A stretch of 64,000 nt of DNA, taken from assembly GCA_017642585.1 (NCBI GenBank), contig JAGCOR010000020.1, positions 1-64,000 of the forward strand, written 5' to 3'. This DNA comes from Alphaproteobacteria bacterium. Its GTDB lineage: Bacteria > Pseudomonadota > Alphaproteobacteria > Rs-D84. Both the position numbers and the translations under genes were made by a program. Positions 35,030 to 40,838 of this stretch are shown here, piece by piece. Within the stretch, counting starts at the first letter, position 1. Every line of letters begins with the position of its first letter. Under the pieces are notes generated by a model. That model saw nothing but the letters and a program-made list of their open reading frames with translations, had not been told where the DNA came from and did not search any database.

Positions 35030-37888
35030 ATGACCGGATTTATAAAAATTCGCGGTGCGCGCGAAAATAATCTTAAGAATATTGATTTGGATCTGCCAAA
35101 GAACAAATTGGTGGTGTTGACTGGTGTATCTGGATCCGGAAAATCTTCATTGGCTTTCAATACTATTTATGCCGAAGGACAACGCAGATATGTTGAATCT
35201 TTGTCCAGTTATGCGCGTCAATTTTTAGATATGCAAAAAAAGCCTGATGTTGATTTAATCGAAGGTTTATCCCCAGCAATTTCCATAGAACAAAAAACTA
35301 CATCAAAAAATCCACGTTCAACCGTGGGGACTGTGACGGAAATATATGATTATTTGCGTTTGTTGTGGGCGCGTATAGGGGTTCCTTATTCGCCTGTAAC
35401 GGGATTACCAATTAAATCGCAAACTATTGCTGAAATGGTTGATTGGACTTTGAAAATTCCACATGGGGTTAAATTCTATATCATGGCGCCAATGGTTCGT
35501 GAAAGAAAAGGCGAATACAAAAAAGAAATTGCTTTCTTGATTAAACAGGGATACCAACGCGCAATCATAGATGGCGAATTATATGAACTGTCATCTGTGC
35601 CACCGTTGGATAAAAATAAAAAGCATAATATTTTCATAATCATAGACCGTGTTGCGATGCCTGATGCAGATTTATCGGGTGATGATGCCGATGAATTTCG
35701 TTCGCGTTTGTATTCTTCGTTCGAAGCATCTTTACGTCTGGTGCCAGGTGCGGTAATTGTTCGCAGATTAGATACAAATCAAGATACTTTATATTCCCAA
35801 GAATACGCATGCCCGGTCAGTGGTTTTACTGTTCCAAAAATAGAACCCAGATTATTTTCTTTTAATGCACCATTGGGCGCGTGCAGTGCTTGTGATGGTT
35901 TGGGTGTGCAATTAAATATATCGCCTGATTTAGTGGTGCCTGATCCTTCGAAATCTATATTAGGTGGTGCAATTGCACCGTGGTCACGTGGTGGCATGTT
36001 AAGCCAATATGAAAATGTTATAGATGCATTACATAAAAAATACAAAATACCTTTGTCAAAACCATGGCATACATTAACTCAAAAAGAAAAAGATATTATT
36101 TTGTATGGTACTGGGGACGAAGAAATCAAAATCAATTGGAATGGGTATGTTTATGAAAAACCATACGAAGGTGTAATTCCAAATTTGGAACGCAGATTGC
36201 GCGAATCTGATTCTGAATCTATGCGTGCAGATCTGGCAAAATATCAAACAGAAAAAACATGTCCTGAATGTCATGGTAAACGTTTGAATATCCAAGCATT
36301 ATGTATAAAAATAAATGATTGCGACATTATGGATGTTTGCGAAATGTCTGTGGAAGATTCTTTGCGTTGGTTTATGGAATTGCCTGAACATTTGACAGAC
36401 AAAGAAAACGAAATTGCAGGTATTATTTTACGCGAAATTACGACCCGTTTATATTTCTTGAAAAATGTTGGGTTGGGATATTTAACTATGTCGCGTATGG
36501 CGGGAACTTTGTCAGGTGGCGAAGCACAACGTATAAGATTGGCATCCCAAATCGGCAGCGGTTTATCGGGGGTATTATATGTATTGGATGAACCATCAAT
36601 TGGTTTGCACCAAAGTGATAATGATAAATTGATAGAAACACTGAAAATGTTGCGCGACAAAGATAATACTGTGATTGTTGTGGAACATGATGAAGATATG
36701 ATGCGGGCTGCTGATTATTTGGTTGATATTGGTCGCGGTGCAGGTATCAATGGTGGAAATGTGATTGCATGTGGAACTCCAGATGAAGTTATTAAATGCG
36801 AAGATTCTTTGACTGGACAATATTTATCAGGCAAAAGAAAGATAGATGTTCCCAAAAAACACCGCGAAGGTAATGGAAAATTCATAAGAATAGAAGGCGC
36901 ACGTGCAAACAATCTTAAAAATATATCTGTTGATTTCCCATTGGGTAAATTTATTGCATTAACTGGTGTGTCGGGGTCTGGTAAATCGACTTTGTTATTA
37001 AATACTTTGTATCCTGCGATTATGCGTGTGTTGTATAATTCTAAATTAGAAGCGGGTGAACATGATATTATTTATGGCATAGAAAACATAGACAAGGTTG
37101 TTGACATAGATCAATCACCAATTGGGCGCAGTCCACGCAGTAATCCTGCAACTTATGTGGGGGTGTTTAATAATATTCGTGAATTTTATGCTGGATTGCC
37201 AGAAGCCAAAGCACGCGGATATGATGCCGGCCGTTTTTCATTTAATGTCAAAGGTGGCAGATGTGAAGCATGCCAGGGTGATGGACAAATAAAAATTGAA
37301 ATGAATTTTTTGGCTGATATTTATGTGGAATGCGATAAATGTCATGGACAAAGATATAATGACGAAACTTTGGCTGTGAAATACAAAGGCAAATCTATTG
37401 CTGATGTGTTAAATATGACGGTTGAAGAAGCATACAGATTTTTCATCAATGTCCCACAAATTGCACGCAAATTGGAATTATTAAAACGTGTCGGTTTGGA
37501 ATACATAAAGTTAGGACAAAGTTCATTAGATTTGTCGGGTGGTGAAGCCCAACGTATTAAATTGTCCAAAGAATTGGCAGCGCGCAGTACTGGTCAAACT
37601 ATATATATATTGGATGAACCAACAACAGGATTGCATTTTGAGGATATAAAATCGCTGTTGTCTGTGTTGCATGAATTGGTCGACCAGGGAAATACCGTAA
37701 TTGTCATAGAACATAATTTGGAAGTTATAAAAACAGCCGATTGGGTTGTAGATTTGGGCCCAAGTGGTGGTGCAGGTGGGGGCAGAATTATTGCAACAGG
37801 AACCCCAGAAGATATCGCCAAAAATGAAGAATCTTTGACCGGTCAATATCTTAAAAAGTATCTGGACAAACCGAAAAAAAGCAAATAA
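35030..37888 (+). CDS. uvrA: Excinuclease ABC subunit A
   Basis: 952 residues with both ABC modules: Walker [13 protein letters not shown] (about 31) and [12 protein letters not shown] (about 640), and signatures [13 protein letters not shown] and [13 protein letters not shown]. There are zinc-finger pairs CSACDG / CPECHG in the first half and CEACQGDG / CDKCHG in the second. UvrA finds bulky DNA lesions and loads UvrB. There is no good ribosome site; TATATC ends 9 nt before the ATG. It begins a run of genes extending to lysC. Confidence 0.98.
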
Positions 37889-37926
37889 TATAAACAATAT
37901 AAAAACAAACACCAAGGAGATGAAAA

Positions 37927-38421
37927 ATGTTTGGATTTGGAAAAAAGAAAGCAACTCAAGAAACTGAAAACAAAGAAGCAGAATCTGTGAAAATGCCAAC
38001 AGGTATGAAAGCTACCGCTGAACGTATGATGTCTGGTCAATTCGATATGAATGATATGTTGGCACAATTAAAACAAATCAAAAAGATGAGCAATTTCAGT
38101 GGATTATTGAAAATGGTTCCGGGCATGAAAGATGCTGTGGCTGCTATGAAGGAAAAAATTGCAGATGGCAGTGTTGATATGCAAATCAGAATTTTGGAAG
38201 CTATGACAGCCGAAGAACGTGCTGACCCAGAACGTGTATTTGCAAATGCTAAAAATCGTATTGCTGAAACCGCTAAATGCACAGTTCGTGATGTTGAACA
38301 CATCATCAAACAATACACAAAAATGAAACAACAAATGGCTATGATTCAACGTATGGGCGGTATGGAAGCTGTTATGCAACGTATGCAACAAGCCGGTGGT
38401 GTTCCAGGGGGAAATAAATAA
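37927..38421 (+). CDS. Stand-alone SRP54 (Ffh) M-domain-like protein
   Basis: 164 residues, AAGGAG upstream. After a charged 30-residue N-terminus, the whole protein follows the Ffh M domain: SGQFDMNDMLAQLKQIKKM, LLKMVPGM, ILEAMTAEERADPERVF, RIA, VRDVEHIIKQYTKMK and a Met/Gln-rich tail (RMGGMEAVMQRM). The NG GTPase domain is absent, and the upstream sequence is uvrA, not a broken ffh. In true Ffh the RNA-binding segment is S-R-x-R-R-I-A-x-G-S/C-G; here it reads ANAKNRIAETAKCT, so the Gly-Ser-Gly loop is lost. It could bind hydrophobic helices or RNA, but function is unknown. It lies 38 nt after uvrA. Confidence 0.82.
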   Translation: MFGFGKKKATQETENKEAESVKMPTGMKATAERMMSGQFDMNDMLAQLKQIKKMSNFSGLLKMVPGMKDAVAAMKEKIADGSVDMQIRILEAMTAEERADPERVFANAKNRIAETAKCTVRDVEHIIKQYTKMKQQMAMIQRMGGMEAVMQRMQQAGGVPGGNK

Positions 38422-38422
38422 A

Positions 38423-38779
38423 ATGGAAGGTATCGTTCGGGTTGGTGAACAATCTTATAATATTGTCCCAATTGAAATAAAACATTTTGGACCTTTGTAT
38501 GACAGATTCCAAGATTTGGAAGGGTGGCGCATAACCATCAATTTCAAAGGAAATATATTAGGTTTGGCGCATCAGCCAGAATTGTGCAGACGATATGGTA
38601 TTTGTCCTCGTGGTGCAGAAATGATATATCGTGATTACAGTTCAACCAGAGATATCACGCAAATCAGATATATGTTCAACAGCGGTTTATTCAAAAAACG
38701 TTGTGAAAAACGCGCAACACAATTCAAGCAAGAAATTCAAAATAAAATGAATTCTGGACAACAACACGCGGGGCGTTGA
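38423..38779 (+). CDS. Unknown protein, single-unit member of a tandem family
   Basis: 118 residues from the ATG at 38423, one base after the stop of the M-domain gene; GGGGG lies upstream within that gene. Soluble and basic. It shares a pattern with the next gene: LEGWRITINFKGN here against LKGFRVTVTYNGR there, and IRYMFNSGLF against VDYIFRDGLF, each followed by a basic helix with F-K-[QK]-[ED]. No known family recognised. Confidence 0.7.
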   Translation: MEGIVRVGEQSYNIVPIEIKHFGPLYDRFQDLEGWRITINFKGNILGLAHQPELCRRYGICPRGAEMIYRDYSSTRDITQIRYMFNSGLFKKRCEKRATQFKQEIQNKMNSGQQHAGR

Positions 38780-38795
38780 TAACGGGGGTAATAGC

Positions 38796-39452
38796 ATGAA
38801 AAAACGGATAGACATTTTACAGCCAATTAATGTGTCGGGTGTTTATACCGTTTTGAAAGACCCACAAACTTTAAAGGGTTTTCGGGTTACTGTTACTTAT
38901 AATGGTCGGTCAAATATTAAACAAAAACGTTCAAATAAAATTGATGTGTTTCCAACTAAACGCGGATGCAAATTTGGCAATGTAGTTTATGGTGATGATA
39001 AAACATCCGTTGATTATATTTTTCGTGATGGTTTGTTTTTGCCTGATTCTATGGCGCGTGCCAATGATTTCAAAAAAGATGTAGAACAAATCGTTAATTC
39101 GCAACCTGTCGAAGCAAATGGGGTGGGGAAATGTTTCTTTTCACTGCGTTTGAAAAAATGGTCTATGTGTAAACCAATCGGTAATGACAGTATGTCTGTG
39201 GGATATGGTGTAACGGTCAATTATCCTGGGAATTTAACCTTAAACCCTTTGTTTAAATATCATATCGAAGAACCGGATGTTAATGTTGCGAGTGTAACAT
39301 ATAATCCACATACAAAAATGACAGAAGTTTTATATTATGTCAGCCAAAAAGATTACATGAATGCGAAAGACGCTTATACTGTTGCGAATGTGTTTCACAT
39401 CATGATATGTTATCGAATAGCCGGTACACAAAGAAATGAAAATATTAAATAA
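38796..39452 (+). CDS. Unknown protein, two-unit relative of the preceding gene
   Basis: 218 residues; GGGGG lies 8 nt before the ATG. The N-terminal half (about 10-105) resembles the preceding protein (GFRVTVTYNGR, YIFRDGLF, FKKDVEQIV). The C-terminal half (about 118-210) appears to be a second, more diverged copy (GYGVTVNYPGN). No signal peptide. Its 3' end overlaps the rlmE start by 17 nt, so the two are in one transcript. Function unknown. Confidence 0.7.
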   Translation: MKKRIDILQPINVSGVYTVLKDPQTLKGFRVTVTYNGRSNIKQKRSNKIDVFPTKRGCKFGNVVYGDDKTSVDYIFRDGLFLPDSMARANDFKKDVEQIVNSQPVEANGVGKCFFSLRLKKWSMCKPIGNDSMSVGYGVTVNYPGNLTLNPLFKYHIEEPDVNVASVTYNPHTKMTEVLYYVSQKDYMNAKDAYTVANVFHIMICYRIAGTQRNENIK

Positions 39453-40095
39453 AAAAATTGCAGCACATAAATCTTCGGTTGCATGGCTTCAACGTCAGGC
39501 GGCCGATCCTTATGTTGCGCGCGCCCAGAAAGATGGGTATCGTGCGCGTGCTGCATATAAAATCATAGAAATAAATGACAGATATCATTTCTTTCGTGAT
39601 GGCCAGGTTGTTGTTGATTTGGGTGCAGCGCCGGGTTCTTGGTCGCAATATGTTGCTCACGAATTTCCAAAATCAAGAATTTTTGCTATGGATTTGTTGG
39701 AAATTAAACCTATTAACGGGGTTGAATTTTACCAGGGAGATTTTACAACCGATGAAGCGTTGCGTTGGTTGGAAGATAAATTAAATATTCCACATGATGA
39801 AATCGGTGGCGGCACTGCGGATGTTGTTATGTCTGATATGGCACCGAACACTGTGGGACACAAAAAAACAGACCATTTACGTCAAATGGTTTTGTTGGAA
39901 TATGCTTTTGATTTTGCATTACATGCGTTGAAGCAGGGGGGGACGTTTGTTGCTAAATCTTTCACGGGTGGTACAACAAACGATTTGTTAAAACAAATCA
40001 AAGAACATTTCGAAGATGTGCATCATATAAAACCGCCATCTTCACGCAAAGATTCTGTGGAAATGTTCATTGTCGCCACTGGGTTCAAAGGGTAA
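39436..40095 (+). CDS. rlmE: 23S rRNA 2'-O-ribose methyltransferase RlmE (FtsJ)
   Basis: 219 residues. The SAM-binding motif VVDLGAAPGSWSQY and the K-D-K-E catalytic set are visible: Lys in RARAAYKIIE, Asp in VMSDMAPN, Lys in FVAKSFTGG, Glu in SVEMF. RlmE methylates U2552 of 23S rRNA in a late 50S assembly step. It overlaps the upstream gene by 17 nt and is 17 nt from the aspartate kinase gene. Confidence 0.96.
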   Translation: MKILNKKIAAHKSSVAWLQRQAADPYVARAQKDGYRARAAYKIIEINDRYHFFRDGQVVVDLGAAPGSWSQYVAHEFPKSRIFAMDLLEIKPINGVEFYQGDFTTDEALRWLEDKLNIPHDEIGGGTADVVMSDMAPNTVGHKKTDHLRQMVLLEYAFDFALHALKQGGTFVAKSFTGGTTNDLLKQIKEHFEDVHHIKPPSSRKDSVEMFIVATGFKG

Positions 40096-40112: not shown

Positions 40113-40838
40113 ATGAAAATTGTTATGAAATTCGGTGGAACATCTGTCGCCGATATAGCAAAAATTAAAAATGTAGCCAACATAATAGCAAAACAAAGTA
40201 AAACTGCGGATGTTGCAGTGGTTGTTTCTGCTATGGGAAAAACGACAAATGCTTTGACTGCATTGGCACATCAAATCACCGACAAACCGAATTTGCGTGA
40301 ATTGGATGCGTTGTTATCAACGGGTGAAAATACATCTGTCGCATTGTTGGCATTGGCATTAAATTCGATAGGTGTTCCTGCAAAAAGTTTTAATGCTATG
40401 CAACTGGGAATTATAACAAACGATAATTTCGGTGATGCAGAAATTATGCATATAAATACGTGGAGTATTCCATATAAAGTTATTCCTGTGATTACGGGTT
40501 TTCAAGGCATGACCGAACATGGCGATATAACAACATTAGGACGTGAAGGTTCAGATACATCTGCAGTTGCGATTGCTGCGGCGATTGTAGCCGATTATTG
40601 TGATATTTATACCGATGTAGATGGTGTTTATACTGCCGATCCAAATGTTGTAAAAGATGCCAAAAAATTAGATTTCATTTCGTATGACGATATGTTGAAA
40701 ATGGCAAACAACGGTGCAAAAGTTCTGCACCCGCGCAGTGTTTCAACCGCACAAAAATACAATGTTCCAATTCGTGTGCGTGGAACATTTACACCAAATG
40801 ATTTGGGAACTTTGGTTGCAGCATCAAAACGAAGATAA
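40113..40838 (+). CDS. lysC: Aspartate kinase catalytic domain without ACT domains
   Basis: 241 residues, GAAAGG upstream. The kinase domain is complete: [10 protein letters not shown] (ATP/aspartate site), [42 protein letters not shown] and [15 protein letters not shown]. It then stops near the end of the catalytic domain ([14 protein letters not shown]), where standard enzymes of about 400 residues continue into two ACT domains for lysine/threonine feedback. The stop is 2 nt from the end of convergent rnhA, so no hidden ACT region can follow. It makes aspartyl phosphate for the lysine/diaminopimelate and threonine/methionine branches. Confidence 0.9.

What the first reader, a model, noticed from the sequence alone, without database searches (positions are those of the whole stretch)
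37927..38421. Free-standing SRP54 M domain with lost SRP-RNA motif
The 164-residue protein aligns by eye along the full Ffh M domain (FDMNDMLAQLKQIKKM, VPGM, MTAEERADPERV, VRDVEHIIKQY, Met-rich tail) but has no NG GTPase. The RNA-contact segment RRIA-x-G-S/C-G is changed to NRIAETAK. The upstream gene is an intact uvrA, so it is not simply a broken ffh. It could be an SRP-independent chaperone for hydrophobic segments, a decoy for signal sequences, or part of a new targeting factor.
Basis: partly seen in the sequence, partly recalled or inferred. Interest (0 to 1): 0.75.

Follow-up and report, generated by a model that had tools for sequence, protein, structure and literature searches.

The report
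Bacteria keeping only SRP's signal-binding domain
A large group of small-genome gut bacteria appears to have lost the signal recognition particle's GTPase, its receptor and its RNA, yet keeps the signal-binding piece as a small, strongly conserved stand-alone protein, much as mitochondria did independently.

Summary
ORF 37927-38421 (+) is a complete 164-aa Ffh M domain without the NG GTPase and without the SRP-RNA motif. It is the only SRP protein found in this genome (Candidatus Enterousia, order Rs-D84, Alphaproteobacteria). Across 183 genomes of the family, 164 genomes (seven genera) lack Ffh-NG, FtsY and SRP RNA. 154 of these carry the free M protein; the best-assembled genome without it has the region masked. 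The other 19 genomes (six genera) keep the normal system, apart from gaps in incomplete bins. In those genera ffh sits between uvrA and rlmE, exactly where the M gene sits here, so this is ffh truncated in place. The M core is under strong purifying selection (dN/dS about 0.04), an N-terminal octapeptide (MFGFGKKK) is nearly invariant, and 82 of 84 copies have a Shine-Dalgarno site. It is not a relic, an assembly split or a decoy. Most likely it is a GTPase-free, RNA-free signal/TM-segment receptor working with SecA/SecYEG/YidC (inferred). The closest precedent is the mitochondrial M-domain-only protein MAP67/mL105 at the mitoribosome exit tunnel. I found no bacterial precedent in the literature searched.

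The parts
37927..38421 (+). free-standing SRP54/Ffh M-domain protein (164 aa), the genome's only SRP protein
   Evidence: PF02978 E 3.8e-21; only PF02978 match in genome; 80 orthologous loci
37927..37950 (+). N-terminal octapeptide MFGFGKKK, nearly invariant in the genus (MSWFSKKKK / MAWFSKKKK in sister genera); putative docking or membrane peptide
   Evidence: M1-F4 and K7 85/85, other positions 77-84 of 85; sister genera; function inferred
37951..37992 (+). variable, weakly constrained linker (about residues 9-22)
   Evidence: dN/dS about 0.88 versus 0.04 in core
38038..38337 (+). SRP_SPB signal-binding core (residues 38-137), with finger loop SNFSGLLKMVPGM
   Evidence: PF02978 1-91/91; AF2 model matches signal-bound M domain 4xco_D Z 13.6, rmsd 1.6 over 93 residues
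38242..38280 (+). former 4.5S-RNA binding motif, now ANAKNRIAETAKC
   Evidence: mean net charge about +1.1 versus +4.6 in Ffh; motif absent in 85/85
37913..37920 (+). Shine-Dalgarno sequence (AAGGAG) upstream of the ATG
   Evidence: GGAG in 82/84 orthologues
35030..37888 (+). uvrA, conserved upstream neighbour marking the ancestral ffh slot
   Evidence: uvrA next upstream of M in 81 of 84 loci; uvrA-ffh-rlmE in g18, g20, g21, g22
39436..40095 (+). rlmE, conserved downstream neighbour marking the ancestral ffh slot

Best explanation
SHOWN: in an ancestor of Candidatus Enterousia and neighbouring genera of family Rs-D84, ffh was truncated in place. The N and G domains were removed, the signal-binding M domain was kept behind a short new N-terminus, and FtsY and SRP RNA are gone as well. 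The resulting protein changed quickly once (long stem branch) and has since been held under strong purifying selection in about 150 sampled species. INFERRED: it works as a GTPase-free and RNA-free receptor for signal peptides and transmembrane segments. The Met-rich groove captures hydrophobic segments of nascent chains. The conserved MFGFGKKK-type N-terminus, on a flexible linker, docks the protein on the membrane or on the ribosome. Cargo then passes to SecA/SecYEG/YidC without a GTP-controlled handover. Targeting would thus be by tethering and proximity rather than by a GTPase cycle, as proposed for the mitoribosomal M-domain protein mL105/MAP67.
For: Positional orthology uvrA-[ffh or M]-rlmE. 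M proteins are one clade (100/100) nested in the family's Ffh M domains (98/99), stem 1.28 changes per column, short tips. No NG GTPase in 164 genomes of the M-only genera apart from weak Der-type hits; a lineage-specific NG profile gives at most 17 bits in G003 and G132 against 227-348 bits for held-out positives. The family's own SRP-RNA 22-mer is found in 17/19 Ffh-bearing genomes and in none of 164 M-only genomes except one 3-mismatch chance-like hit. dN/dS core 0.04, N-terminus nearly invariant, linker 0.88. Groove and Met content kept (11.3% vs 10.3%) while the RNA motif's charge falls from +4.6 to +1.1. Model fits signal-bound M domains at rmsd 1.6. Sec, SecB, trigger factor, YidC and YidD are present in G003, and about 50 predicted proteins with four or more spans remain. 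mL105/MAP67 precedent.
Against: No binding, localisation or interaction data exist. The MFGFGKKK function is a guess from composition. YidC has no Oxa1-like tail that would point to a ribosome tether. A free M domain could have taken on an unrelated role. Organisms are uncultured and genomes are metagenome bins, though some are in 1-8 contigs.
Confidence: 0.62

Rival explanations
1. A soluble post-translational chaperone (holdase) for transmembrane segments or preproteins that feeds SecA or YidC, without ribosome or membrane tethering.
For: SecA, SecB and trigger factor are all kept; no NG domain, so the known N-domain contact to the ribosome is gone; Met-rich groove kept.
Against: A nearly invariant basic and aromatic N-terminal octapeptide beside an unconstrained linker suggests docking to something; mL105 precedent is ribosome bound.
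Confidence: 0.2
2. New function unrelated to protein targeting (for example binding another RNA or a protein through the altered helix-turn-helix part).
For: Long stem branch (1.28 changes per column) shows a change of constraint; former RNA face strongly rewritten and then fixed.
Against: The most conserved parts include the finger loop and groove helices that bind signal sequences; the RNA face lost positive charge.
Confidence: 0.13
3. Decaying relic of ffh without function.
For: Genome-reduction lineage; NG, FtsY and SRP RNA gone.
Against: dN/dS 0.04 in the core; PF02978 present in 114 of 115 high-quality genomes of the family (the last one is masked there); Shine-Dalgarno in 82/84; about 90% coding density reported for these genomes (PMC12306168).
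Confidence: 0.01
4. Assembly or binning artefact: the NG half, FtsY and SRP RNA exist but were missed.
For: Own genome is 89% complete in 30 contigs; Rfam's RF00169 under-detects the family's RNA.
Against: Same result in 156 genomes of the genus, including a 1-contig genome of 1.0 Mb (99% complete, G041) and a 2-contig genome read in full; related genera assembled the same way do show the components.
Confidence: 0.02

Closest known systems
MAP67 / mL105 (eukaryotic mitochondrial M-domain-only protein; PMC8321541, PMC7326499, PMC9576764)
   Same: Ffh M domain without NG GTPase; proposed to have arisen by internal deletion in an ffh copy; works without SRP RNA; the profile of the free M proteins hits 6z1p_AT at E 1.8e-5 and the model matches it at Z 10.1.
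   Different: Mitochondrial protein of eukaryotes, very divergent, proposed to come from a duplicated mtFfh, seen on the mitoribosome. Here it is a bacterial gene in the original ffh locus, with SecYEG and SecA still present.
Bacterial Ffh (SRP54) with 4.5S RNA and FtsY
   Same: M domain fold, finger loop, Met-rich groove, gene locus.
   Different: No N or G domain, no RNA motif, no SRP RNA, no FtsY.
Chloroplast cpSRP54 of seed plants
   Same: SRP RNA lost together with mutation of the RNA-binding motifs (as stated in PMC8321541).
   Different: cpSRP54 keeps its NG GTPase and cpFtsY.
Laboratory SRP-deletion strains (Streptococcus mutans, PMC8546722; suppressed E. coli, PMC8299109)
   Same: Cells live without SRP using the remaining Sec and YidC machinery.
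   Different: Artificial and impaired, and without a free M domain; here the loss is natural and clade-wide.

Membership tests
Pfam SRP_SPB (PF02978), M-domain superfamily | Full-length profile match above gathering score | tested here: met
   75.7 bits vs cut-off 27, profile 1-91/91; 38/38 orthologues
Bacterial Ffh (signal recognition particle protein, TIGR00959) | N and G (SRP54 GTPase) domains | tested here: not met
   164 aa, TIGR00959 80 bits vs cut-off 473 and only positions 310-427; no PF00448 above cut-off in genome
Bacterial Ffh (signal recognition particle protein, TIGR00959) | 4.5S-RNA binding motif and a partner SRP RNA | tested here: not met
   motif absent 85/85; no RF00169 and no family-specific RNA 22-mer
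Bacterial Ffh (signal recognition particle protein, TIGR00959) | FtsY receptor in the genome | tested here: not met
   E. coli FtsY no hit at E 0.01 in fully read G003; family-wide PF00448; lineage NG profile
MAP67 / mL105 | M domain without NG domain | tested here: met
MAP67 / mL105 | Common descent with the mitochondrial protein rather than separate truncation | tested here: inconclusive
   free M proteins nest inside the family's own Ffh (98/99) and sit in its ffh locus, which argues for separate truncation; MAP67 itself was not placed in the tree
MAP67 / mL105 | Bound at the ribosomal tunnel exit | not testable with these tools
   needs cell material or reconstitution
Signal-sequence binding factor | Binds signal peptides or TM segments | not testable with these tools
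   only groove conservation and model fit to signal-bound structures

The most novel reading that the evidence does not exclude
A natural, clade-wide bacterial protein-targeting pathway that runs on a GTPase-free, RNA-free M domain with a built-in N-terminal docking peptide, evolved independently of but parallel to the mitochondrial MAP67/mL105 solution; that is, the SRP GTPase cycle, SRP RNA and receptor are all dispensable in living bacteria if signal recognition itself is kept.
Probability: 0.55. Interest if true: 0.9.

Novelty: new variant of a known kind. Interest (0 to 1): 0.83.

Why it matters
SRP is usually treated as universal and its two GTPases as the heart of targeting. Here evolution separated recognition (M domain) from the GTPase timing device in a bacterial clade of about 160 sampled species, and shows which part selection would not let go. 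It repeats, in Alphaproteobacteria, what mitochondria did, so it offers a bacterial model for how mitochondria lost SRP. It also gives a directly testable question: can an M protein of some 165 residues replace Ffh, 4.5S RNA and FtsY for membrane protein insertion?

Tried and rejected
(1) A complete ffh elsewhere: none in own genome or in 164 genomes of M-only genera. (2) Weak PF00448 hits of 17-23 bits: the one read is the Der/EngA GTPase; the others match the same profile stretch. (3) RF00169 alone as proof of RNA loss: rejected as too weak, since it also misses most Ffh-bearing family members; replaced by a family-specific motif. (4) G132 (100% complete, no M protein) as a true loss: 72 kb of its contig 2 reads N, and uvrA, rlmE and tkt are missing with the M gene. 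(5) Compensation by an Oxa1-like YidC tail: YidC C-termini are about the same length in M-only and Ffh-bearing genera. (6) N-terminus borrowed from FtsY: FtsY of relatives starts MFG(K)LGKK.. or MGFFSKIF.., suggestive but far too short to claim. (7) Downstream ORFs 38423-38779 and 38796-39452 as partners: no family, relatives in only a few loci. (8) Single origin in the species tree: the M-protein tree says one clade (g16 not included); the YidC tree leaves g16 unresolved, one clade not rejected (p-AU 0.30).

Full report
WHAT IS THERE. The window's ORF 37927-38421 on the + strand encodes 164 residues from an ATG preceded by CAAGGAG. It matches the signal-peptide-binding domain SRP_SPB over its whole length (75.7 bits, E 3.8e-21) and the bacterial Ffh model only over its M part. 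AlphaFold2 on an alignment of 38 orthologues gives the M-domain helices at mean pLDDT 72, core blocks 74-93. The model aligns best with M domains solved with a signal sequence: 4xco_D Z 13.6 and 3ndb_B Z 13.3, both rmsd 1.6 over 93 residues.

IT IS THE WHOLE SRP OF THIS ORGANISM. The genome (0.97 Mb, 30 contigs, 89% complete) has one PF02978 match, this gene, no SRP54-type GTPase above cut-off (the weak hit is Der) and no bacterial SRP RNA by Rfam. The orthologues belong to Candidatus Enterousia and relatives, order Rs-D84 of the Alphaproteobacteria: gut bacteria with reduced genomes, described in PMC12306168, a paper that does not mention SRP. The relative G003 was read in full (2 contigs, 945 kb). 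E. coli SecA, SecY, SecD, SecF, YajC, YidC, YidD, SecB, trigger factor and GrpE all find their counterparts, Ffh finds only the M protein (query residues 329-449), and FtsY finds nothing at E 0.01. An NG profile built from relatives' own FtsY and Ffh scores at most 17 bits in G003, against 227-348 bits for held-out positives.

CLADE-WIDE PATTERN. In 183 genomes of the family, SRP54 GTPases are found in genera g15 and g18-g22 (18 of 19 genomes; the exception is a 54% complete bin) and not in g1 (the window's genus, 156 genomes) or g11-g14, g16, g17. Two g1 genomes score a marginal 23 bits on the same profile stretch as the Der hits. Free M proteins (frames 150-273 aa) occur in g1, g11, g12, g13, g16 and g17, in 154 of 164 genomes; full-length Ffh frames occur in g15 and g18-g22. 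For g16 the match was tallied but its frame was not listed or read. Of 115 genomes at least 90% complete, 114 have PF02978; the remaining one, G132, has 72 kb reading N, and its uvrA, rlmE and tkt are missing with the M gene, so it is not a counter-example. The other genomes without a match are 54-87% complete. Outside the family, all 16 order relatives sampled have Ffh and FtsY.

SRP RNA. Rfam's model proved too insensitive here: it detects the RNA in only 6 of the Ffh-bearing family genomes and always below the gathering score. Those hits share an apical motif GGTCAGGGGGAAACCAGCAGCC, with small changes. Searching this 22-mer with up to three mismatches finds it once in each of 17 of 19 Ffh-bearing genomes and in none of 164 genomes of M-only genera, except one 3-mismatch hit in G104 that I regard as chance. 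Gapped versions of the motif find nothing in G003 or the window.

ORIGIN. In Ffh-bearing genera of the same family the order is uvrA - ffh - rlmE - rnhA - transketolase, sometimes with one small gene between (loci L208, L209, L211, L212; gene names from the sequence by inspection). In the window and in nearly all of 84 M-bearing loci the order is uvrA - M - rlmE. So the gene is ffh itself, shortened in place. The M proteins tested form one clade (100/100) inside the family's Ffh M domains (98/99), on a long stem (1.28 changes per column) with short tips: a burst of change, then stasis. A YidC tree groups g1, g11, g12 and g17 (100/98) and leaves g16 unresolved; a single origin is not rejected (p-AU 0.30).

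WHAT WAS KEPT AND WHAT WAS LOST. Kept: finger loop (SNFSGLLKMVPGM), helices of the groove, Met-rich C-terminus, Met content 11.3% vs 10.3%. Lost: the RNA-contact motif [SAG]R[KR]xRIAxG[SAC]G, replaced by NAKxRI.. in 85/85, its mean net charge falling from +4.6 to +1.1. The same coupling of RNA loss and motif loss is reported for chloroplast SRP54 and mitochondrial Ffh (PMC8321541). New: an N-terminal octapeptide MFGFGKKK, nearly invariant in the genus, with MSWFSKKKK, MAWFSKKKK or MAWFGRSKK in g12 and g13, followed by a linker under almost no constraint (dN/dS 0.88) and a core under very strong constraint (0.04; dS is near saturation, so these are rough). 82 of 84 copies carry a Shine-Dalgarno site.

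HOW IT MOST LIKELY WORKS. Shown: presence, near-universal retention, selection, loss of partners. Inferred: the protein binds signal sequences and transmembrane segments in its groove and is held near the site of action by its N-terminal peptide, handing cargo to SecA/SecYEG/YidC without GTP. The peptide's aromatic-glycine-lysine make-up would suit a membrane surface or ribosomal RNA; the data do not decide. A crude hydrophobicity count gives about 50 proteins with four or more membrane spans in G003, so the need for insertion remains. YidC shows no extended ribosome-binding tail. Confidence: in-place truncation and functional retention about 0.95; a role in targeting about 0.75; tethered GTPase-free receptor as worded about 0.6.

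RELATION TO WHAT IS KNOWN. The closest known thing is mitochondrial MAP67/mL105, an M-domain-only protein found widely in eukaryotes (PMC8321541), seen at the exit tunnel of the Tetrahymena mitoribosome without an NG domain (PMC7326499) and proposed in Polytomella to contact the insertase (PMC9576764). The free M profile reaches it by sequence (6z1p_AT, E 1.8e-5) and fold (Z 10.1). By locus and tree the bacterial case looks independent, though MAP67 was not placed in the tree. Even a smaller insect endosymbiont (Moranella) keeps Ffh, 4.5S RNA and FtsY (PMC3620526). Searches of the open library for natural bacterial SRP loss with a retained M domain gave nothing; subscription papers are not covered.

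LIMITS. All genomes are metagenome bins; no expression or binding data; SRP RNA absence rests on motif and model searches; g16's M protein was not read; no gene-content comparison for compensating gains was possible.

Noticed in passing
L223 1875-1971; L224 1687-1766; L225 1777-1856 (-); L226; L227; L231-L247: SRP RNA of the Ffh-bearing genera of family Rs-D84 has an altered, shortened apical hairpin (GGTCAGGGGGAAACCAGCAGCC) that drops it below Rfam's gathering score; it would be missed by routine annotation.
   Followed up: partly
class-wide genomes G215, G346 (0.6 Mb, one contig), G252 (1.7 Mb, one contig), G280, G307, G272, G247, G327: Several near-complete alphaproteobacterial genomes outside this order show no PF02978 match at all: further SRP losses, masked stretches or very divergent M domains.
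   Followed up: no
window 38423-38779 and 38796-39452: Two uncharacterised ORFs inserted between the M gene and rlmE, without Pfam or NCBIfam match; weak relatives lie in the same slot in only a few Enterousia loci.
   Followed up: partly
genome G177 (genus g14, 78% complete): Neither M domain nor SRP GTPase found; may be incomplete or a further step of loss.
   Followed up: no
window 40113-40838: Aspartokinase-like ORF of only 241 aa, by eye a catalytic domain without regulatory ACT domains.
   Followed up: no
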